Part shown: one piece after another, positions 4,920 through 46,108 of the stretch
Layout of the letters: the number at the start of each line of letters is the position of its first letter
How positions within the stretch are numbered: the stretch's first letter is position 1
The notes under the pieces: generated by a model
Seen by the model: only the letters and a program-made list of their open reading frames with translations
Database searches by the model: none
What the model was told of the DNA's origin: nothing
Origin: Brachyspira pilosicoli
GTDB lineage: Bacteria; Spirochaetota; Brachyspiria; Brachyspirales; Brachyspiraceae
Direction: 5' to 3'
DNA length: 64,000 bases
Assembly (NCBI RefSeq): GCF_036997485.1
Contig: NZ_JAWLPU010000001.1
Location: 558,001 to 622,000, forward strand
Position numbers and translations under genes: made by a program

Positions 4920-5325
4920 TTGTTGTTTTTTCCCGCATCAAAAAGTGCAAGTTCTATAGTTTTATAAGTATTCTAACTTCATATATAATAGTTTTTTATT
5001 CAACTTTTACCGCCGCAAAAAGTTGCAAAAAGTGCCAACATTTTAACTATATATGTTGGAATATAATTAAATATAAAAAATAATACCATATGTTTTCAGA
5101 TATACTTCATAAAAATGCAGCCTTTTTGCTTCTTTGTGGCAACAAAAGAAGTGGGGTGCGGGGCAAAGCCCTGCAAATATTTTAGTTAAACAAATAATTT
5201 TTTATATTAATGTATGTTTTGTTTTATTCAACTTTTTCCCGCAGCTACGCGGTGCGGACTTCGTCAAAGAACCAAAAAGTGCGAGTCTTATAACTTTATA
5301 TCTTTGGAATATGTAAAACTAAAAT
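4920..5325 (+). repeat. Composite intergenic repeat, locus 1
   Basis: The gene-free gap 4905-5366 holds A-type boxes (CAACTTTT...CCGCCGC, AAAAAGTTGCAAAAAGTG) near 4999-5036 and 5227-5284. A C-type box (AATGCAGCCTTTTTGCTTC ... AAAAGAAGTGGGGTGCGGGG) lies near 5114-5175, with A/T spacers resembling TTGGAATATGT between. The same modules recur at seven other gaps in the window. Open frames across this stretch follow the repeat and do not look like a gene. Confidence 0.8.
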
Positions 5326-15324: not shown

Positions 15325-16716
15325 TTATTGTTTAGGTGTTGATGTTGGATATTCTCCATTAAAACAGCCTATACAATAGTTTGTGCCGCCTAAAGCTTTA
15401 AACATATCTTCTATAGATAAATATTCTAAACTATCTGCATTAATCTCTTTACAAATTTCTTCAACAGAAAGTTTTGCGCCTATAAGTTCTTTTTTTGAAG
15501 ATATATCAACTCCATAGTAGCAAGGGCTTTTTATAACAGGAGAAGCAGACCTAAAATGAACCTCTTTAGCACCTGCTTTTCTTACTATATCAATAAGTAT
15601 TTTGCTTGTAGTGCCTCTTACGAGTGAGTCGTCTATTAGTATAACTTTTTTGCCGTCTATTAAATGTTTTAAAGGATTGAATTTTAATTTCACAGTTTCT
15701 TCTCTGCTTGACTGTTCTGGCATAATGAAAGTTCTGCCAATATATCTATTTTTAACCAAACCAATGCTATAAGGTATACCGCTTTCTTTTGCAAAACCTA
15801 ATGCTGCAATGGTTCCAGAATCCTGTACGCCTATTACAATATCAGCATCTACTGTATTTTTTTTGGCAAGTAAAACACCTGTTTGAAACCTTACATTATA
15901 TACATTAATACCGTCTATATTGCTTTCAGGTCTTGCAAAATATATATGCTCAAAGGCACAAGGACAATTTTTTAATTTAGTATTTTTGTATTTTATAGAT
16001 TGAATACCATTATCGTCTATAATTACCATTTCGCCTGCTTCTATATCGCGTACAAATTTAGCCCCAACAGCATCTAAAGCACAAGACTCAGAAGCTAAAA
16101 AATAATCACCATTAGAATTAGTTCCTAACGATAAAGGACGTATTCCATGAGGGTCTCTAACTCCAATTAATTTTCCGTCTACAACTATAACTAAAGCAAA
16201 AGCTCCTTCAATTATATTGATAGTCTCTTTTATTCCGTCTATAAAATTATTTACAGTTTTTCTTGCTATTAACTTTATTATAACTTCACTGTCGGAAGTA
16301 GCATTGAATGTTGCTCCCTCCTGCTCTAATTTATCTCTTAATTGATATGCATTAGTAAGGTTGCCGTTATGTGCTATAGCTATTTGACCTAATCTAAATA
16401 GGTTCTCAAGAGGCTGAGCATTTTCTATTTTGCTTGCTCCTGTAGTAGAATATCTTACATGTCCTATAGCTATATTTCCTTCTGTTTCTTTTGGGATGTT
16501 ACTTGAAAATAAATCTGAAACGAGCCCCATAGATTTATAAGTAAATAAATGTTTATAATTTGATATTGTTATTCCAGCACTCTCTTGGCCTCTATGCTGA
16601 AGTGCATATAGTGCATAGTTAAGAGTTTTTAATATGTCTTTTTTTATTTCTTTTGAGTATATGCCGAATACTCCGCATTCTTCTTTAGGTTTGTCGCATT
16701 TAAAAAATTCATTCAT
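15325..16716 (-). CDS. purF: Amidophosphoribosyltransferase, iron-sulfur type
   Basis: It makes phosphoribosylamine from PRPP and glutamine, the first step of purine synthesis. Cys14 in EECGVFGIY is the glutaminase nucleophile, exposed after removal of a 13-residue propeptide. The PRPP-binding loop is VILIDDSLVRGTTS. Cysteines at NCPCAFEH, SPCYYG and NYCIGCFNGEYP fit the 4Fe-4S ligands of the Bacillus-type enzyme, so activity may be oxygen-sensitive, which suits an anaerobe. 463 residues is full length. No strong ribosome binding site precedes the ATG. The gene is divergent from the ATPase/TOPRIM pair. Confidence 0.96.
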   Translation of the reverse strand: MNEFFKCDKPKEECGVFGIYSKEIKKDILKTLNYALYALQHRGQESAGITISNYKHLFTYKSMGLVSDLFSSNIPKETEGNIAIGHVRYSTTGASKIENAQPLENLFRLGQIAIAHNGNLTNAYQLRDKLEQEGATFNATSDSEVIIKLIARKTVNNFIDGIKETINIIEGAFALVIVVDGKLIGVRDPHGIRPLSLGTNSNGDYFLASESCALDAVGAKFVRDIEAGEMVIIDDNGIQSIKYKNTKLKNCPCAFEHIYFARPESNIDGINVYNVRFQTGVLLAKKNTVDADIVIGVQDSGTIAALGFAKESGIPYSIGLVKNRYIGRTFIMPEQSSREETVKLKFNPLKHLIDGKKVILIDDSLVRGTTSKILIDIVRKAGAKEVHFRSASPVIKSPCYYGVDISSKKELIGAKLSVEEICKEINADSLEYLSIEDMFKALGGTNYCIGCFNGEYPTSTPKQ

Positions 16717-16884
16717 ATATTTTAACCAATTTTTTATTTTTTTGATTTATATATATTATAATTAATTAGTGTTTTACACAATAGTTATTAAAGAATTTTA
16801 TTATTTATATATATGTTTAAATATTTTGACAATAAATATTTATTGATATATTATTTATTTTATATAAAAAGTTGTAGGTTTTTT

Positions 16885-17949
16885 ATGGATAATATTCAAA
16901 TACCAAATATAAGCATAAGCAATTTTAAATGTTTCAAAGAGTTTAAAGTAGATAGTTTTAAAAGGTTTAATTTAATATTTGGTAAAAACAGTGTAGGAAA
17001 AAGCAATCTTTTAGAGGCTTTGCATATATATTCTGGTATGTTTATAAGTGATATTATTATAGCAAATTATATGCAAAGAAATATAGCATTAAATAATAAT
17101 TTGGAATTAATTTTTAATAATTTTAACTGCAATAATCCTATTAATATAAAAACTACAAAAAAAGAATTAAATATATACCCCATAAAGTCATTAACAGATA
17201 ATTACTTAGATGGTGTTTATTATCAAGTAGAAAATAGCAATGGAGAAATTATAAAACTTCCTCTTCTTATAAATACTAACAGACAGCTTGATAACAGTTT
17301 TGAATCAATTAATAATAAGATAATATTTGATAATCAAACTATATATTCAACATATTATAATATTAGATTATTACCTTATAGCTTTATTAATGATTATTTC
17401 TTTATAGAAGAAACTGCTAAAAGCGATATTATAAAGATGTTTAATAACCTTCAGAATTTAAAACAAGATAAAATTATAGTAGACTGTCTAAAATCTATAA
17501 TACCAAATTTAAGATCAATTAGAATATCATCGGATAGAATTTGTGAGGCAGATATTGGTCTTGATAGATATTTACCTATAAATGCATTAGGTTCTGGAAT
17601 ATATAAAATATTCAGTTATATAGTAAGTGCATCATTTATACGAAATGGCGTTTTACTTATTGATGAAATTGATAATGGTTTTCATTATAGTTCATTGCGT
17701 AATTTATGGATTTCTCTATTTGAAGTAGCCTATAGAAGTAGTGTTCAGATTTTTGCAACAACTCACTCCTATGAATGTATAAAAGCTTTTAATGATGTTT
17801 ATAACGAAGTAAAAAATAAATATAATTCAAATGACGACATTCAAGGTATAAGAATAGAAGCTGACAAAGAAGAAAAACATAAGTATCATTCTATTATATA
17901 CAATAGTGAAGAATTAAATAATGCTATGGATAATTGGGAGGTAAGATAA
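16885..17949 (+). CDS. AAA ATPase of a putative defence pair (OLD/AriA-like)
   Basis: This 354-residue ABC/SMC-like ATPase belongs to the AAA_15/AAA_21 type. It opens with ISISNFKCFKEFKVDSFKRF and Walker A GKNSVGKSNLLEALH near residues 32-46. Walker B LLIDEIDNGFH lies near 265, followed by QIFATTHSYECIKAF, the His switch. The ATG at 16885 has TAGG upstream; an earlier in-frame ATG at 16813 would add a hydrophobic stretch not expected for this family. The downstream TOPRIM-like gene begins 5 bp after the stop, so the two are translationally coupled. Such ATPase/TOPRIM pairs occur in OLD-type and PARIS-type anti-phage systems. Confidence 0.8.
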   Translation: MDNIQIPNISISNFKCFKEFKVDSFKRFNLIFGKNSVGKSNLLEALHIYSGMFISDIIIANYMQRNIALNNNLELIFNNFNCNNPINIKTTKKELNIYPIKSLTDNYLDGVYYQVENSNGEIIKLPLLINTNRQLDNSFESINNKIIFDNQTIYSTYYNIRLLPYSFINDYFFIEETAKSDIIKMFNNLQNLKQDKIIVDCLKSIIPNLRSIRISSDRICEADIGLDRYLPINALGSGIYKIFSYIVSASFIRNGVLLIDEIDNGFHYSSLRNLWISLFEVAYRSSVQIFATTHSYECIKAFNDVYNEVKNKYNSNDDIQGIRIEADKEEKHKYHSIIYNSEELNNAMDNWEVR

Positions 17950-17953
17950 AATA

Positions 17954-18613
17954 ATGCTCAATAATCCTATGGCTAAAAAAGTGCTTCTTGTTGAGGGTAA
18001 TGATGAAAGAGATTTATGTTCTCTTTTAATTAGCAAAAAATTAGGGTTAAACTATATAACAGGAAAATATGATAAATCTTTTATAGGAGATAATGATACT
18101 GTTCATATTATACCACTTAATGAAGTTGATAATAAAAACAACATTACTTCATTTATAAAAAGCCCTAATTATAATAATATAGAAAAACTCGGTATTTTAG
18201 TGGATGCTGAAGATAATGCTCAAGAAAGATTTAATATTTTTAATGATATTATAAAACTTAAATATAATGCAAATCAAAATATATACTATGATAATAATAA
18301 AGGTTTATTTCTAACAACAAAAACTAATGATAAAAATTCTGGTTGTTTAGAATATTTAGTTGAAGATATTATTTTAGAAAAAGATAAAGATTTGTATAAT
18401 AACTGTGTTAATAATTTTTTTGATTGTGCCAATAATTATATTAATCAAGGAAGTAATGAATATCATATACTAAAATCTAAAATACTTGCATTTATATCTG
18501 TAAAATGTAAGAAGAGAAATACTATAGGTGGATTATTTCAGGATTGTAATGATTATTTGAATTCAACAAAGTTAGATGATATTATAGATTTTTTAAAAAA
18601 TTTATTTAATTAG
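17954..18613 (+). CDS. TOPRIM-like protein partner (DUF3226-like)
   Basis: This 219-residue protein begins AKKVLLVEGNDERDLCSLL, where the Glu of VEGNDE is the first TOPRIM acid. LGILVDAEDNAQERF near residues 77-91 supplies the DxD-like acidic pair. SGCLEYLVEDIIL and a basic KCKKRNTIGG follow. This matches the DUF3226 type of single-domain TOPRIM proteins that sit next to AAA ATPases. The likely activity is metal-dependent nucleic-acid cleavage switched by the ATPase; this is inferred. A GGGAGG at the end of the upstream gene serves as its ribosome binding site. ATG 17969 is an alternative start. The exact family needs a profile search. Confidence 0.72.
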   Translation: MLNNPMAKKVLLVEGNDERDLCSLLISKKLGLNYITGKYDKSFIGDNDTVHIIPLNEVDNKNNITSFIKSPNYNNIEKLGILVDAEDNAQERFNIFNDIIKLKYNANQNIYYDNNKGLFLTTKTNDKNSGCLEYLVEDIILEKDKDLYNNCVNNFFDCANNYINQGSNEYHILKSKILAFISVKCKKRNTIGGLFQDCNDYLNSTKLDDIIDFLKNLFN

Positions 18614-18766
18614 TTTAATTTTATTGTTTATATACTTAAAAATTATTTAGAACTCCCGCCCTTTATTCTCTATAGCGTTTTATTGAAATTTTAATTTAAA
18701 TTATTTTATTGTTTAATTAGAAATGTTAACGCCCACCCAAGCTTTTATTAAGTAAAAAATCTATTT

Positions 18767-18847
18767 AACGCACGGTAAGCGAATTTTGTTTTTTATTAAA
18801 TTTGAATTTTTAATTAATTTATTGATGAAATTTTATTCACCGTGCGG
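18767..18847. repeat. Small intergenic inverted-repeat element, copy 2
   Basis: CGCACGGT (18769-18776) and ACCGTGCG (18839-18846) flank about 62 bp of A/T-rich DNA. The left end reads AACGCACGGTAAGC, as in copy 1, and the right end is preceded by TTATTCAC. It lies just after the ATPase/TOPRIM pair. The flanking AACGCCCACCCAAGCTTT at 18728-18745 is unusually GC-rich for a gap and may belong to the element family. Confidence 0.65.
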
Positions 18848-18875
18848 TGTAAATTTTTTTATAAAAATTTAGAAA

Positions 18876-20033
18876 TTAAAATAAAGCCTTCATAGCAATA
18901 TAGTATCTTCCATCTGTAGAGCCTTGAAAACCAAAGTAAACAGGGTCAAATTTTACATAAGCACTGTATTCCAAACAAAATAAATCTTTATCTTTATCAA
19001 ATCTATGTATGTTATCATCTTTATGCTCAATAGGTATATAAAATAAAGGACGTATAGCAATGTTAAGCATTTTCCATTCAAGCCCTAATTCAAATCTCAA
19101 ATAATGAGCATCATTGTCTCTCCAAGTATACTCTCCAAGCATATTAAGCCAAAGCTGATTATCCAAGAAAGGAACTTTACCCATAGCATAAAGCTGTATT
19201 ATATGATGAGTATAATCATTAGAATAATTAATATTGTCAAAAGCTTCCGGAGAGAGAGAGGACTTTTTATTGTACTGATACAAAAATTGTACTTTGAAAT
19301 AGTCTCCATTAATTTTAAAAACAGCTGCCAAAGGAGAAGAGTTTTCAGTAAACCCTTGTGAATAAGAAAGCTCATAATAATGCCCAATAAAGCCAGTTCT
19401 AAACCCCATAGCATTGTTTATCCTCGGTAAATACCAATGCGGAACATCTTCAAAACTTTCAGCAGAGCTATCAACTACAGAAGGTAAAAGCATAAAAGTA
19501 GATTCATTAATATCATTAACAGCCTTCATTCTAAAAGATAATAAAAGCCTTGTTAATGTTACAGTTTCTATACCTGCATCATAAACCTCTATGTTTCCAT
19601 TAGCTTTCACTTTTCCATTTTCACTAAATACATTTAATTTGCTTGAAAGCGTTACAAAAGGAGTTGCAGAAAATATCCAATCATAATGAAAACTTTTACC
19701 CACAGAAAAATACATGTTAGGCATAGAAAAGTTTCCGTTTTTTAAATCTACTCCTATAACAGTATTCATATGAAGCTCTATGGTTGATAATTCATATAAT
19801 AATCTTGAAGAGAAAATTCGAGGGTCAGGATTATCCCTCTTATAACTTTCATGTATATAATCATAAGGTATATATGATGTAGTAGGTCTAATAGGCTCTA
19901 AACCTATGTACGGCCAAATATCTATTACCCCTTTCAATAATTTCTGCTCTTTTTCAGAATATGGGGATTGCGCATTGAGTGCTAAACAATTAAGAATAAA
20001 GAAAATAAATATTATTTTTTTTAGCTGTTTCAT
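18876..20033 (-). CDS. Exported, probably outer-membrane, protein of unknown function
   Basis: This 385-residue protein has signal peptide MKQLKKIIFIFFILNCLALNAQ (cleavage probably after NAQ). The mature part has a proline/tyrosine-rich start (DIWPYIGLEPIRPTTSYIP) and then many alternating strands with aromatic ends (LHMNTVIGV, NMYFSVGKSFHYDW, LRFELGLEWKMLNIAIRP). It ends in YYIAMKALF, a terminal Phe typical of outer-membrane beta-barrels. I do not recognise a named family. It is a single leftward gene, divergent from the zapA operon, with no strong ribosome binding site. Confidence 0.75.
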   Translation of the reverse strand: MKQLKKIIFIFFILNCLALNAQSPYSEKEQKLLKGVIDIWPYIGLEPIRPTTSYIPYDYIHESYKRDNPDPRIFSSRLLYELSTIELHMNTVIGVDLKNGNFSMPNMYFSVGKSFHYDWIFSATPFVTLSSKLNVFSENGKVKANGNIEVYDAGIETVTLTRLLLSFRMKAVNDINESTFMLLPSVVDSSAESFEDVPHWYLPRINNAMGFRTGFIGHYYELSYSQGFTENSSPLAAVFKINGDYFKVQFLYQYNKKSSLSPEAFDNINYSNDYTHHIIQLYAMGKVPFLDNQLWLNMLGEYTWRDNDAHYLRFELGLEWKMLNIAIRPLFYIPIEHKDDNIHRFDKDKDLFCLEYSAYVKFDPVYFGFQGSTDGRYYIAMKALF

Positions 20034-24564: not shown

Positions 24565-24763
24565 AACTTTTTCCCACCGCTACGCTCTGTGGACTTCGTC
24601 AAAGTTTTTACCATTCGGGTAAGATTCTCGAAGAACTGCATTTTTAGCCAAAATATAATGTTTATGCTATATTTTATACACACTCCTAAAGAATTAGATA
24701 TAGTATGTGCGTTTTTTGCAACTTTTTGACGAAGTCCGCACAGCGAGAGCGACAAAAAAGTTG
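24565..24763. repeat. Composite intergenic repeat, locus 4, palindromic arrangement
   Basis: Two A-type boxes face each other: AACTTTTTCCCACCGCTACG...GTGGACTTCGTCAAAG (24565-24606) and its inverted partner CTTTTTGACGAAGTCCGCAC...GACAAAAAAGTTG (24722-24763). About 110 bp of A/T-rich DNA with a GC-rich insert (CATTCGGGTAAG) lies between. The whole could fold into one long hairpin. It fills the 24476-24830 gap. Confidence 0.75.
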
Positions 24764-24830
24764 ATAACTTCTATATAATGTGCATAAATTGACAGAATGT
24801 AGTTGTTTCAGTATATACTCAAATTAATAA

Positions 24831-27800
24831 TTATTTGTATTTCACTTTTACTAATTTTAAGTCTACCGATATCATAAACAAGCTCGGCAAAAATATTAAT
24901 GTTAAAAGTGAAGCAAATAAAAGTCCATAAGCCATAGCCATAACCATAGGTACAATCAAATCTGCATTGCCGCCAATTCCATAAACCGTAGGAAGAAGTC
25001 CGAATATTGTAGTAACTGTTGTTAAAAATATTGCTCTAAACCTATCTCCTGCTCCTTCAACTACAGCATTAAATACATCTTGTTTTGATTGTATGTTTCC
25101 TTCTTCTAATATTCTGTTTATTAAGTCAACCATTATAATACCATTGTTAACAACAACTCCCGCAAGACCTACTATACCAACAGCTCCCACAAATGACATA
25201 GGCATTCTATGTGCAGCAAAACCTAATATAACTCCTACAACCCCAAAAGGTATTATTCCAAGTATCATAAGAGGCTGAATAAATTTATTGAATTGTAATA
25301 AAAGTATTAAATATATCGCTATAATCGCTACAACATATCCATATGCTATGCTTTTCATAGGCTCTTTAGTTTCTTTTACTTCGCCTCCAAACTCTATAGT
25401 TATATTAGGATAATCTTTAGAAATAGAATCAAAGAATTTCTGAACAGAGTCTGTTACTCTTATAGCAGTAGTTTTTCCTAATACTATATCAGTTGTTAGT
25501 GTTATGGATTTTTTACCGTTGTAGTGTCTTATACTTGATTGATTATTTGTAACTTCTATTGTTGCTATATCTTTTAATTGTATGAGCCTTCCATAAGTGC
25601 TTGGCATATATAAATTATTTAATACATTTGTGTCGTAGGTGTATTTTTTATCCATTCGCACCCTAAAATCAAGCTTGTTTTCAAATTGCTGAATGGAAGT
25701 GGCAACTATTCCAGAATATGCAGCCCTTAATTCTCTTGCAGCATAGGCAACATTTACACCAAGTTCGCTCATTCTGTCATAATCAAATAACACTCTAAGC
25801 TCTTCCATACCAATCTTGTCATCATCATCATAGTTTATAACGCCTTCTAATGTTAATAAATGTGCTTTTATTTTGTCTTTAACTTCTTTAACTTTTTCAG
25901 TATCATTTCCTATTATTTTTACATCTACAGCTTTACCGGGTGTTATAGGAAGTTTTGTATGTATTGTAAGAAGTGCTAATTCATCTCTAAGACCTGCCTC
26001 TTCTACAGCTTTTTCTAAATCATCAGCTATGTCATAAGCTACTTTTTTTCTGTTGTTTGCCGGTACTAAATATATAATTGTTCCTGCAAGATTGTCCATC
26101 TCTTCGGAAATATCAACAGTGTTTTTATCTAATTGCTTTCCAAGTAAACTATAAACTGCAATCATATCATTAGTATCTACTGTTTTATAAATAATGTCTT
26201 CTATTTCACTTAAATATTTTTCTGTTTTATATAATGGAGCTCCAACACCTGCATCCATATTAATAACAACAACATCAGCACTAGTATCATAAACAAGTAT
26301 AAATTGAGAAAATACAATCTTAAATATAAATATGCTTACAATAAATATACTTATAAAAAATATTAAAACTAAATATCTATGTTTGAGAGTAAGTCTCAAA
26401 AATTTAACAAAAGGTATTTTTAGCTTATCAAATAATTTATCTTTATCAAAATCGAGAGGATTTTTAAAATTAAATCTTTTTTTCTTTTTTATGCCTGTTA
26501 ATTCTTCATTAGTTATTAAGTTGTTTGGAAGTATTAATACAGCTTGAAATATACTTGCAATTAAAGCTATAATTACAACTTTAGGATATTGATTAAGAAG
26601 CCTTCCCATAGTGCCGCCCACAAAAAGAATAGGCACAAAAGAAGCAACTGTTGTGAGTGTTGATATAAGCATAGGCATAAACACTTCATGAACAGCATTC
26701 TTTGTGGCATCTAAACCTTTAAAACCTCTTTGGTGAAAGTTAAATATATTCTCTGATACAACTATAGAGTTATCTACAATCATACCAAGTACAGTGATAA
26801 GCCCGCCAAGAGATATAATATTAAATGTGATTCCAGAGTATGTCATAAATATCAAAGAAACTGATATAACAATAAGCATACCAAGTGAAGTAAATATTGC
26901 ACTCTTAAAATCCAAAAATATTATTAGTATTATAAATATGATAATAAAACCAGTGATGATATTTGATGATACGGCATTAAGAAGGTCGTTAATGGTTCTT
27001 GAGTTGTCAAACATAGGAACTATTTCTATATTGCTTGGAATAGTGGATTTATTTTTTTCAAAGTAAGCATTAACATTTTCTATTGTTTTTAATATATCAG
27101 CATCTTCTTTTTTTACTATGTTTATAGAGTATCCATTTTCTTTATTCACTCTCATATACACAGTTTTATCAACAAACATCTCTTCCACTCTTGCAACATC
27201 CGCTATTCTTATAGGCTTTCCGTTGAATATAGAACGAACTATAACATTTGTAATTGATAGAGGGTCCTGAAACTGCCCTGTTGTAACTAATAATTTATTG
27301 TTAGCATCAAGCCCATCGCTTTCATCTGGCTTCATACTTCCGCTTGTAAGCCTTACATTTCTTAAAGATAATGCCTGCACTATTTCGCTTAATGATGTGT
27401 AGTATTCTTGAAGTTTGTATGGATCTGCTATAATCTGAATCTCTGGGTCTGTTCTTCCATATACTTCAACGGTTGCCACTCCATCAACATATTTAAGCTC
27501 TTTTTCAAATCTTTTTGATATATCATAAAGCTCTTTTTCTGTGCCTTCCATTCCTTCTTTGAATTTTATTCCTATATTGTATATTGGAAGCCTATTAGCA
27601 TTGGCCTCTGTAATTTTTATCTCTGTAACATCTTTAGATACATTCGGTGCATTTTGAAGCCTTCTAAATATTTCATCTTTTATAGGTCTTGTATCTTTTA
27701 TTTTCATGTCTATTCTAATTGTAAGAATACCTGCATTTTCTATCATTATAGAATAAAACTCATCAATACCCGCTATAGTTTGAAGCTCATCTTCTATAGG

Positions 27801-29560: not shown

Positions 29561-29724
29561 TATTATTATACTTTATATTTTATTTATGATTATTATTATA
29601 TCAAGTACAGAAAAATTACTATTGTATGATAAACGACATTTTTTTATTTTTGTAAATTATATTTATGGAAATTAAGCTTATTACTAATGTATTCTAAATA
29701 ATTATATTTTGCTATATAAGTTTT

Positions 29725-30180
29725 TATTTTATTCAACTTTTTCCCGCCTTCGCGGTGCGGACTTCGTCAAAGTTGCAAAAAGTGCAAGTTATCTAACTTT
29801 ATATATTAAGAATATGTATCAAGTATAAAATAATACTAATTATTTTAGCTAAAAAAATGCAGTTCTTTTGGTTCTTTTATACCAATAAAAGAACTGGGGG
29901 CGTGGGGGCAAAGCCACCACAAGCAAAAAACTTAAATTCTTTTAAGATATGTTAAACAACTATATTTTACAATGTAATTTTTTGTTTTATTCAACTTTTT
30001 CCCGCCGCAAAAAGTTGCAAAAAGTGCAAGTTATATGTTGTAATATGTATTAACATAAAATAATATATGATTTTGGATATGCTTAAAAGTTAGTTTTTTT
30101 AATGCAGCCTTTTTGGTTCTTTGTGGCAACAAAAGAACTGGGGGTGTGGGGGCTAGTCCCCGCAAATAATAAAAAACTTA
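29725..30180 (+). repeat. Composite intergenic repeat, locus 5, two direct units
   Basis: Two same-direction A-spacer-C units lie at about 29733-29924 and 29990-30168. Unit 1 has an A box with insert TTCGCGGTGCGGACTTCG. Unit 2 has the uninterrupted form CCCGCCGCAAAAAGTTGC. Both C boxes end in GGGGG...GCAAA-type purine-rich DNA. The second unit runs into the TTGACA...TATAAT promoter of the TetR gene. Confidence 0.8.
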
Positions 30181-42932: not shown

Positions 42933-43360
42933 TTGCGGGGGACAGTATCAGCAAATATTTTACTATATATATTGGAATATGTATTAACTATAAAATAATA
43001 CCTGCATTTTAGCATAAAAAATGCAGTCTTTTTGCTTCTTTGGGTCACCAAAAGAAGTAGGGGTGCGGGGACTAGTCCACGAAAACAACAAAATTTAAAA
43101 ACAAAAAATTGACAAACTTAAAAATTTTCAGTATATACCAAAAAAAGAAGTGGGTGTGTGTAGCTATAGGGCACGCTTCGCAGAGGGCTAGTCCCCCATA
43201 AATATTTTAAATTACAAAATATAACTTTTAACAAACTTAAAAATTTTAGTGTATATAAACAATTATATTTTGTCATATAAGTTTTTATTTTATTCAACTT
43301 TTTCCCGCAGCAAAAAGTTTTTACCCTACGGGTACGCTTTGCGAAAGTGCAAATATTTTA
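42933..43360 (+). repeat. Composite intergenic repeat, locus 7
   Basis: The 659-bp gap after rnr holds a C-type box at about 43019-43085 (AATGCAGTCTTTTTGCTTC). A partial C box follows near 43140-43200 with the insert GGGCACGCTTCGCAGAGGGC. An A box near 43295-43350 (CAACTTTTTCCCGCAGCAAA) carries the insert TTTACCCTACGGGTACGC. TTGACA...TATA-type sequences close two of the modules. No gene was seen here. Confidence 0.8.
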
Positions 43361-45550: not shown

Positions 45551-46063
45551 TGTTTGTGGCGGCTTTGCCACCGACCCCCCAACTTCTTTTACCGAGTAGG
45601 TACCTTTCGGTATTGGTATAAAAGAAGCAAAAAAACTATATTTTAAAAAAATCAAGCTTTAGCTGTTGCCCAAAATACATATGATATTATTTTATACATA
45701 TTCCAACATATAAAGCTAAAACATTTGCACTTTTTGCAACTTTGACGAAGTCCGCACAGCGAAGGCGGGAAAAAGAACAATAATTTTTTACTTAAAATTT
45801 TTCAACATAGACTAAGAATTTAGTATTTAAATTTATTGTTTGTGGTGGCTTTGCCCCCACACCCCCAGTTCTTTTACCGAGTAGGTACCTTTCGGTATTG
45901 GTATAAAAGAACCAAAAGAACTATATTTTAAAAAAATCAAGCTTTAGCTGTTGCCCAAAATACATATGATATTATTTTATACATATTCCAACATATAAAG
46001 CTAAAACATTTGCACTTTTTGCAACTTTGACGAAGTCCGCACAGCGAAGGCGTGAAAAAGTTG
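45551..46063 (-). repeat. Composite intergenic repeat, locus 8, recent tandem duplication
   Basis: Two reverse-oriented C-spacer-A units start at 45551 and 45837, 286 bp apart. Between AACTATATTTT (from 45634) and GAAGGCG (to 45767) the first unit is identical by eye to the second. The insert ACCGAGTAGGTACCTTTCGG is also shared. Only the GC-rich ends differ (CACCGACCCCCCAAC versus CCCCACACCCCCAGT). The 45304-46108 gap holds no gene. Confidence 0.85.
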
Positions 46064-46108
46064 ATTAAAAAAAATTACATTGCAAAATATATTGACTTAG
46101 ATATATAA

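What the first reader, a model, noticed from the sequence alone, without database searches (positions are those of the whole stretch)
16885..18613. Coupled ATPase and TOPRIM-like pair, a candidate anti-phage system
An OLD/AriA-like ATPase is followed 5 bp later by a small TOPRIM-like protein with VEGNDE and LVDAEDN acids. PARIS uses an AAA_15 ATPase with a DUF4435 TOPRIM effector; here the partner looks like DUF3226 instead, so it may be a related but distinct type. It stands alone among housekeeping genes next to a small inverted-repeat element, as mobile defence genes often do.
Basis: partly seen in the sequence, partly recalled or inferred. Interest (0 to 1): 0.6.

Follow-up and report, generated by a model that had tools for sequence, protein, structure and literature searches.

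The report
Split ATPase–nuclease phage-defence gene pair
Two neighbouring genes in a gut spirochaete encode an ATP-driven sensor and a small TOPRIM nuclease that together look like an anti-phage nuclease cut into two proteins; the type is listed as a defence candidate, but no functional test of it was found.

Summary
ORF A (16885-17949) is an AAA_15/AAA_21 ABC-type ATPase; ORF B (17954-18613, 4 nt later) belongs to Pfam DUF3226. The predicted fold of B is TOPRIM, nearest to PDB 2p62 (unannotated Pyrococcus protein) and OLD-nuclease C-terminal regions, with the OLD two-metal acids and lysine conserved in 85 relatives. The pair is a unit: 73 of 80 nearest A relatives have a DUF3226 gene next to them, as do 30 of 30 spirochaete loci examined. 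Defence is inferred, not shown: relatives lie in the P2 gpA-portal hotspot that holds old/tin, in a P4-like satellite, in lambda-type prophages, and on 4.2-kb plasmids. In Brachyspira the pair is patchy (12 of 26 genomes) and its nuclease gene is broken in 3 of 12. It is not PARIS (no DUF4435) nor the RloA/RloB form of AbiL; PADLOC already lists it as candidate PDC-M38, overlapping one AbiL-labelled model set. One hallmark I found no report of: A ends in [E/D]-x-Arg at its extreme C-terminus (76 of 80 relatives; 0 of 17 control ATPases), where single-chain GajA enters its TOPRIM domain. The inverted-repeat element is not supported.

The parts
16826..16854 (+). Probable promoter of the pair (TTGACA, 17 nt, TATTAT)
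   Evidence: 11 of 12 matches; but 22 sites found against 23.7 in shuffles, so the match alone means little. The same box arrangement stands before the pair at its secF site in G013.
16885..17949 (+). Gene A: AAA_15/AAA_21 ABC-type ATPase, 354 aa, presumed sensor and holder of B
   Evidence: model pLDDT 93.8; PtuA Z 18.4, AriA Z 17.3, GajA Z 17.0
16981..17004 (+). Walker A GKNSVGKS (A residues 33-40)
   Evidence: G33 and K39 87 of 87 in alignment A4
17305..17484 (+). Most variable stretch of A (residues 141-200), candidate trigger-recognition surface
   Evidence: Mean majority fraction 0.53-0.72 in 12 genus orthologues; identity to the G025 allele is 66-68% at 17300-17499, against 94% at the start of A and 87-100% at its end
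17650..17679 (+). Walker B VLLIDEIDNG (A residues 256-265)
   Evidence: D260, E261, G265 87 of 87
17938..17946 (+). C-terminal Glu-Val-Arg of A; the same bases hold a GGAGGT that may be B's ribosome-binding site
   Evidence: [ED]xR tail in 76 of 80 relatives, 0 of 17 other ATPases; six Arg codons used
17954..18613 (+). Gene B: DUF3226 TOPRIM protein, 219 aa, presumed nuclease effector
   Evidence: pLDDT 89.0; 2p62 Z 12.7; OLD C-terminal regions Z 8.0-9.2
17993..18007 (+). TOPRIM Glu14 and the acid at i+4 (E18)
   Evidence: E14 85 of 85; D or E at 18 in 81 of 85; correspond in order to Bp OLD E400/E404
18203..18211 (+). DxD-type motif, here D84-A-E86
   Evidence: D84 85 of 85; D/E86 83 of 85
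18341..18352 (+). GxLE motif (G130, E133), third metal acid
   Evidence: G130 83 of 85; E133 82 of 85 plus 3 D; corresponds in order to Bp OLD E508
18473..18475 (+). K174, candidate catalytic lysine
   Evidence: K 83 of 85, R 2; corresponds in order to Bp OLD K562

Best explanation
The pair is a two-gene anti-phage (probably abortive-infection) system of the split-OLD kind. A is an ABC-type ATPase that assembles, binds ATP and holds B in check; B is a metal-dependent TOPRIM nuclease. A phage product or a phage-caused change is sensed by A, most likely through its variable stretch at residues 141-200; ATP-driven rearrangement frees or licenses B, which then cuts nucleic acid (tRNA as AriB does, or DNA as GajA/OLD do) and stops phage growth, with the cell probably lost. 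A's C-terminal [E/D]-x-Arg tail, lying where one-chain OLD proteins run into their TOPRIM domain, is proposed as the latch that docks B. Shown here: families, predicted folds, conserved catalytic set, near-obligate pairing, accessory distribution, company in phage hotspots. Inferred: assembly, sensing, release, substrate, cell death, the latch.
For: TOPRIM fold and OLD-type catalytic set. Pairing: 73 of 80 nearest A relatives, 30 of 30 fetched spirochaete DUF3226 loci out of 45 matches, 16 of 19 viral-contig A relatives; correlated A and B divergence r 0.66 in 56 non-redundant loci, 0 of 2000 permutations (shared host ancestry contributes). Company: three IMG/VR contigs with the pair at the P2 old/tin locus, two of them (L284, L285) between gpA- and portal-type genes and one (L289) beside portal and terminase with its upstream side cut off (the locus is described in PMC9122126, passages); a P4-like satellite in E. 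coli MB06172; lambda-type neighbours in L288 and L291; plasmids, 143 records, one 4,167-bp plasmid read in full with only HTH, Rop, ATPase and DUF3226 genes annotated. Gain and loss: 12 of 26 genus genomes, B broken or gone in 3 of 12, the secF-SWIM interval with and without the pair, a fossil of the first codons of A in G012. PADLOC lists A and B as defence candidate PDC-M38.
Against: No functional data for any DUF3226 pair were found. In the window the pair is not in a defence island. Foldseek alone gave no match below E 0.001 for B; its best was the PARIS entry 8ux9 at 0.023, so the fold call leans on the second aligner, where Z 6-8 includes unrelated three-layer folds. Three genus genomes keep A with a closed frame but without a whole B, which a pure sensor-effector pair does not explain unless these are recent losses. 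Some OLD-type proteins have housekeeping roles (Cran1, PMC12796447, passages).
Confidence: 0.8

Rival explanations
1. It is a PARIS subtype: AriA-like ATPase with a diverged AriB.
For: A matches AriA models (3.6e-20) and solved AriA (Z 17.3); B's fold resembles AriB (8v46 Z 6.5, rmsd 5.1, 171 aligned); PADLOC AriB is hit by 9 of 85 B relatives, best 3.8e-6.
Against: PARIS was detected as AAA_15 or AAA_21 plus DUF4435 with score limits (PMC9122126, passages). The window B has no DUF4435 match at E up to 1; 3 of 85 relatives match it, best 0.0016. A scores higher with AbiLi and PDC-M38A than with AriA.
Confidence: 0.08
2. It is AbiL of the lactococcal kind.
For: PADLOC model AbiLi PDLC02336 is the best match of A (1.4e-48) and AbiLii PDLC02338 matches 18 of 85 B relatives.
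Against: The other AbiL model set (PDLC02335/02337) catches RloA/RloB proteins, which have a different, longer ATPase without the C-terminal Arg; the window B matches neither AbiLii model. PMC10440598 (passages) ties AbiLii to RloB. The lactococcal sequence itself could not be compared.
Confidence: 0.15
3. It is a toxin-antitoxin addiction module without a phage role; A neutralises B.
For: Small plasmids carry it; B is lost while A stays in 3 of 12 genus genomes, never the reverse; other AAA/TOPRIM_OLD pairs were tested in toxicity-neutralisation assays (PMC10440598, passages).
Against: Location in P2 and P4-like loci points to phage competition; the two ideas are compatible, as in PARIS.
Confidence: 0.15
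4. It is a housekeeping DNA or RNA maintenance pair.
For: In 8 of the 12 genus genomes that hold it, it follows secF; purifying selection; Cran1 shows OLD proteins can serve the cell cycle.
Against: No close orthologue in 14 of 26 genus genomes, absent between the same neighbours in five, fossil in G012, several further diverged copies per genome in others.
Confidence: 0.07

Closest known systems
PDC-M38 (PADLOC candidate system, models PDC-M38A/PDC-M38B)
   Same: Both genes match: A 6.6e-48, B 8.5e-9; 80 of 85 B relatives match
   Different: A candidate only; no paper found under that name
PARIS (AriA/AriB; class 4 OLD)
   Same: Two genes, ABC ATPase and TOPRIM; similar folds
   Different: Effector DUF3226 and not DUF4435; A is shorter (354 aa against 464 in the solved chains)
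AbiL / RloA-RloB
   Same: ATPase plus TOPRIM-type partner; profile match of the TOPRIM half of A3 to RloB, probability 91%
   Different: RloB family and its ATPases of about 410-460 aa without the C-terminal Arg
Gabija GajA and OLD nucleases
   Same: A aligns with GajA residues 1-372 (Z 17.0, 22% identity), B with OLD C-terminal regions; same catalytic set in order
   Different: Split into two proteins; no helicase partner at this locus
PDB 2p62 (PH0156, Pyrococcus horikoshii)
   Same: Best fold match of B: Z 12.7, rmsd 3.2, 183 aligned
   Different: 14% identity; titled hypothetical protein; no paper found under its name

Membership tests
PDC-M38 | PDC-M38A-type ATPase and PDC-M38B-type partner, adjacent | tested here: met
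   (A 6.6e-48; B 8.5e-9); adjacency
DUF3226 (PF11536) | Score over Pfam's cut-off | tested here: met
   63.7 bits against 27
OLD-type ATPase-TOPRIM | ABC-type ATPase with Walker A, Walker B and H-loop His | tested here: met
   (K39, D260, E261, H294 87 of 87)
OLD-type ATPase-TOPRIM | TOPRIM fold with Glu, DxD and the OLD third acid and lysine | tested here: met
   the window has DxE, as do 19 of 85; equivalence to OLD residues is by order and motif, not by coordinates
OLD-type ATPase-TOPRIM | Metal-dependent nuclease activity | not testable with these tools
   Needs purified protein
PARIS | AAA_15 or AAA_21 ATPase over the published limits (32, 27) | tested here: met
   64.7 and 56.4 bits; limits
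PARIS | DUF4435 partner over 27 bits | tested here: not met
   No DUF4435 match of the window B; 3 of 85 relatives, best E 0.0016
AbiL (RloA/RloB form) | RloB (PF13707) partner | tested here: not met
   No match of the window B; 1 of 85 relatives, 0.0032
AbiL (PADLOC PDLC02336/02338 form) | AbiLi and AbiLii models both matched | tested here: inconclusive
   AbiLi 1.4e-48; AbiLii not matched by the window B though by 18 of 85 relatives
Gabija | GajB UvrD-like helicase beside GajA | tested here: not met
   Neighbouring genes have other families or none
Anti-phage system | Protection against phage | not testable with these tools

The most novel reading that the evidence does not exclude
DUF3226 pairs are a third, unnamed class of split OLD nuclease beside PARIS and RloAB, spread through bacteria and archaea, in which the ATPase holds its nuclease by a C-terminal Glu/Asp-x-Arg latch left at the point where the ancestral single chain was cut; phage sensing pulls the latch and frees the nuclease.
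Probability: 0.3. Interest if true: 0.7.

Novelty: new member of a known kind. Interest (0 to 1): 0.5.

Why it matters
It gives a function hypothesis and a catalytic set to a domain of unknown function, and shows that the pair sits in the phage and satellite loci where old, tin and other tested defences sit. The near-invariant C-terminal Arg makes the control step of split ATPase-TOPRIM systems testable with single-residue changes. Searches for DUF3226, PDC-M38 and PH0156 found no paper in the held open-access library; papers outside it were not searched.

Tried and rejected
Inverted repeats or a MITE as the mobile unit: rejected. Rfam match around the pair: none. PDB by sequence for B: only chance antibody-chain matches. 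Phage records with the pair: no B match for the window or for L205, no near match for L284; A of the window hit two Acinetobacter phage records over 25% of its length. The window B has no tblastn match among plasmids, nor has L142's B; the more typical B of L205 does. The Shine-Dalgarno as full cause of the conserved A tail: rejected for the Arg, since six Arg codons occur (AGA 21, CGC 18, CGT 14, CGG 12, CGA 8, AGG 3) and 23 of 76 use GAA for the Glu; the GAG-GTN preference may still reflect a ribosome-binding site. A single-chain form of A plus B in long ORFs of the loci fetched by then: none found. Profile comparison with DUF4435 rests on three sequences (probability 83%, 66 columns). Literature on Brachyspira with anti-phage defense and on a split-OLD term set: nothing; the PDC systems named in the S. 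thermophilus passages seen (PMC11514479) do not include this one.

Rows dropped: alignment A4 (87 rows) leaves out 8 of the 80 genome loci (L178, L183, L206, L227, L244, L247, L256, L257), so its 87-of-87 Arg count is favourable; the unfiltered count is 76 of 80 (exceptions L183, L206, L227, L234). Alignment A3 uses 67 of the 69 B references (L181 and L244 left out), two more genus sequences, 15 other spirochaete sequences and the window. Only 30 of 45 DUF3226 matches were fetched. The 17 control ATPases are those with a Walker A and a Walker-B-like motif and a stop inside the locus among L258-L283.

Full report
Setting. The window is G000:C1:558001-622000 of a 2.72-Mb genome; its relatives with names are Brachyspira (contigs that equal those of G025 and G015 in length are titled B. 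pilosicoli and B. alvinipulli). The pair lies between a purF-type gene and a 385-aa outer-membrane-like gene.

The two proteins. A (16885-17949, 354 aa) matches AAA_15 and AAA_21 over cut-off; B (17954-18613, 219 aa) matches DUF3226 over cut-off. In PADLOC, A matches AbiLi PDLC02336 (1.4e-48), PDC-M38A (6.6e-48) and, lower, AriA (3.6e-20); B matches two PDC-M38B models (8.5e-9, 4.6e-5) and nothing else at E up to 1. The start at 16885 is preferred because orthologues align from there and the conserved promoter-like boxes at 16826-16854 lie after the alternative start at 16813.

B is a TOPRIM protein. A model made with 85 sequences has mean pLDDT 89.0 and pTM 0.87. The second-look aligner puts it nearest to 2p62, a Pyrococcus protein of unknown function (Z 12.7, rmsd 3.2, 183 residues), then to C-terminal regions of two OLD nucleases (Z 8.0-9.2), a small TOPRIM protein (2fcj, Z 7.1), AriB and retron Eco2 (Z 6.5 each). 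Foldseek by itself was weak, best E 0.023 for PARIS entry 8ux9. In the 85 sequences E14 and D84 are invariant, position 18 is D/E in 81, 86 is D/E in 83, G130 is G in 83, E133 is E in 82 and D in 3, K174 is K in 83. Bp OLD uses E400, E404, D455, D457, E508 and K562 in the same order (PMC6755086, passages). That equivalence is by order and motif; I had no coordinates to superpose.

A is an ABC-type head. Its model (pLDDT 93.8) matches PtuA (Z 18.4), AriA (Z 17.3), GajA (8x5i, Z 17.0, 22% identity) and SMC/Rad50 heads. A residues 3-354 align with GajA 1-372; GajA's catalytic TOPRIM Glu is E379 (PMC8136825, passages). So A ends about where GajA's chain enters the TOPRIM domain, and B begins there: the two read as an OLD protein cut at the domain joint.

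The pair is a unit. A scan of genome contigs with the A family kept the best 80 relatives; 73 of 80 have a DUF3226-type gene directly downstream, often overlapping by 1 or 4 nt. Of the seven others, two are Brachyspira with lost or cut B (L182, L183); the other five (L196, L209, L213, L221, L231) show no partner ORF or an unrelated one and were not studied. In 296 spirochaete-phylum genomes, 31 have a DUF3226 match; all 30 fetched loci of 45 matches have an A-type ATPase next to it. In IMG/VR, 16 of 19 A relatives have B next to them. A and B divergence correlate (r 0.76 in 77 loci; 0.66 in 56 below 50% identity; 0 of 2000 permutations each), which shared host ancestry partly explains.

A C-terminal hallmark. 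The last residues of A are [E/D]-x-Arg with at most four residues after, in 76 of 80 relatives; in the selected alignment the Arg column is 87 of 87, as constant as the Walker lysine, though most rows are only 20-36% identical to the window protein. Seventeen other P-loop ATPases from loci with RloB or DUF4435 genes have it in 0 of 17. Any seven-residue window of the A proteins has it in 3.1% of cases. Six Arg codons are used, so selection is at protein level, though GAGGT of Glu-Val also suits a ribosome-binding site for B. In G011, where B is cut short, the tail reads WEVDK; in G015, where B is gone, WEVR remains. One case for, one against.

Accessory in the genus. Close A orthologues (69-78% identity) occur, with the window's own, in 12 of 26 genus genomes; B is intact in 9, frameshifted in G022, cut in G011 and absent in G015. 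In 8 of the 12 the pair, or what is left of it, follows secF (G003, G013, G015, G016, G020, G022, G023, G024); in five other genomes secF is followed directly by the SWIM gene that elsewhere follows the pair (G004, G005, G009, G012, G019). G012 keeps the promoter region and first codons of A as a fossil, so at least one absence is a loss. The window's genome and G025 carry the pair elsewhere, beside the outer-membrane gene; G001, G007 and G018, closest by purF, lack it. PurF and the outer-membrane gene are about 60 kb apart in G007 and G018, and the genes next to them there lie about 370 and 185 kb away in the window's genome: the pair marks a rearrangement joint. In G025 an rve-type transposase and a DNA methylase stand next to it.

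A mosaic ATPase. Against G025 at the same place, the start of A is 94% identical and its last bases nearly 100%, B is 93-98% for most of its length (85% near its end), but the middle of A falls to 66-68% (17300-17499); synonymous divergence is 0.51 for A and 0.13 for B. The same stretch, residues 141-200, is the most variable in 12 orthologues. Exchange of part of A fits; a sensing role for it is my inference.

Company elsewhere. L284 and L285 hold the pair between a gpA-type replication gene and a P2-type portal gene, L289 beside portal and terminase: the locus where P2 has old and tin and where tested defences lie (PMC9122126, passages). E. coli MB06172 has it beside polarity-suppression and ogr/Delta genes, with an integrase at ssrA, a P4-like satellite by my reading; that allele is in 1 of 5426 E. 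coli genomes. L288 lies between P-like and Q-like genes, L291 after an O-like gene. Plasmids: 143 records match the B of L205, 136 of them Klebsiella; p48896_6 (4,167 bp) has four annotated genes, two of them the pair; a Salmonella plasmid of 3,793 bp likewise; 9 of 5426 E. coli genomes match the Klebsiella-type pair, on plasmids only.

Mechanism and naming. The likeliest reading is a sensor ATPase that holds and then frees or licenses a TOPRIM nuclease. AriA holding AriB, with AriB a tRNA nuclease, is one model (PMC12409363, passages); GajA, inhibited by nucleotides and cutting DNA, is the other. I cannot choose between tRNA and DNA. F. nucleatum AbiLii is toxic in E. coli while lactococcal AbiLii was not (PMC3985639, passages); which family these belong to was not tested. 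By the published rule the pair is not PARIS; by Pfam it is not RloAB; by PADLOC it is PDC-M38, with a separate AbiL-labelled model pair that overlaps it. Hence: a new member of a catalogued candidate kind for which I found no test, with a tail motif for which I found no report.

Noticed in passing
window 17305-17484 against L048: The middle of the ATPase is far more diverged than its ends and than B between the two nearest alleles at the same site, as if part of A had been exchanged.
   Followed up: partly
window 16716-18876: The pair sits on a chromosome rearrangement joint: purF and the outer-membrane gene are about 60 kb apart in G007 and G018, and the genes next to them there lie at C1:942422 and C1:391524 in this genome.
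   Followed up: partly
L048:6884-9102: In G025 an rve-type transposase and an N6/N4 DNA methylase gene stand directly upstream of the pair.
   Followed up: no
L303 and similar plasmids: A family of about 4.2-kb ColRNAI-type Klebsiella plasmids whose main cargo is a DUF3226 pair.
   Followed up: partly
window about 5005-5182, 24635-24838, 29695-29936, 42951-43291, 45574-46071: Dispersed short repeats (about 80-240 bp, 67-88% identity) that recur in other genus genomes, some just upstream of A in G011 and G015.
   Followed up: no
L286:7791-8924: A second, different ATPase of the same superfamily about 2 kb downstream of the DUF3226 pair on a viral contig.
   Followed up: no
L149:2-2508: A larger variant: A frame of 491 aa (cut by the locus edge) and B of 344 aa, still adjacent, with an Arg tail (DLRGESK).
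   Followed up: no
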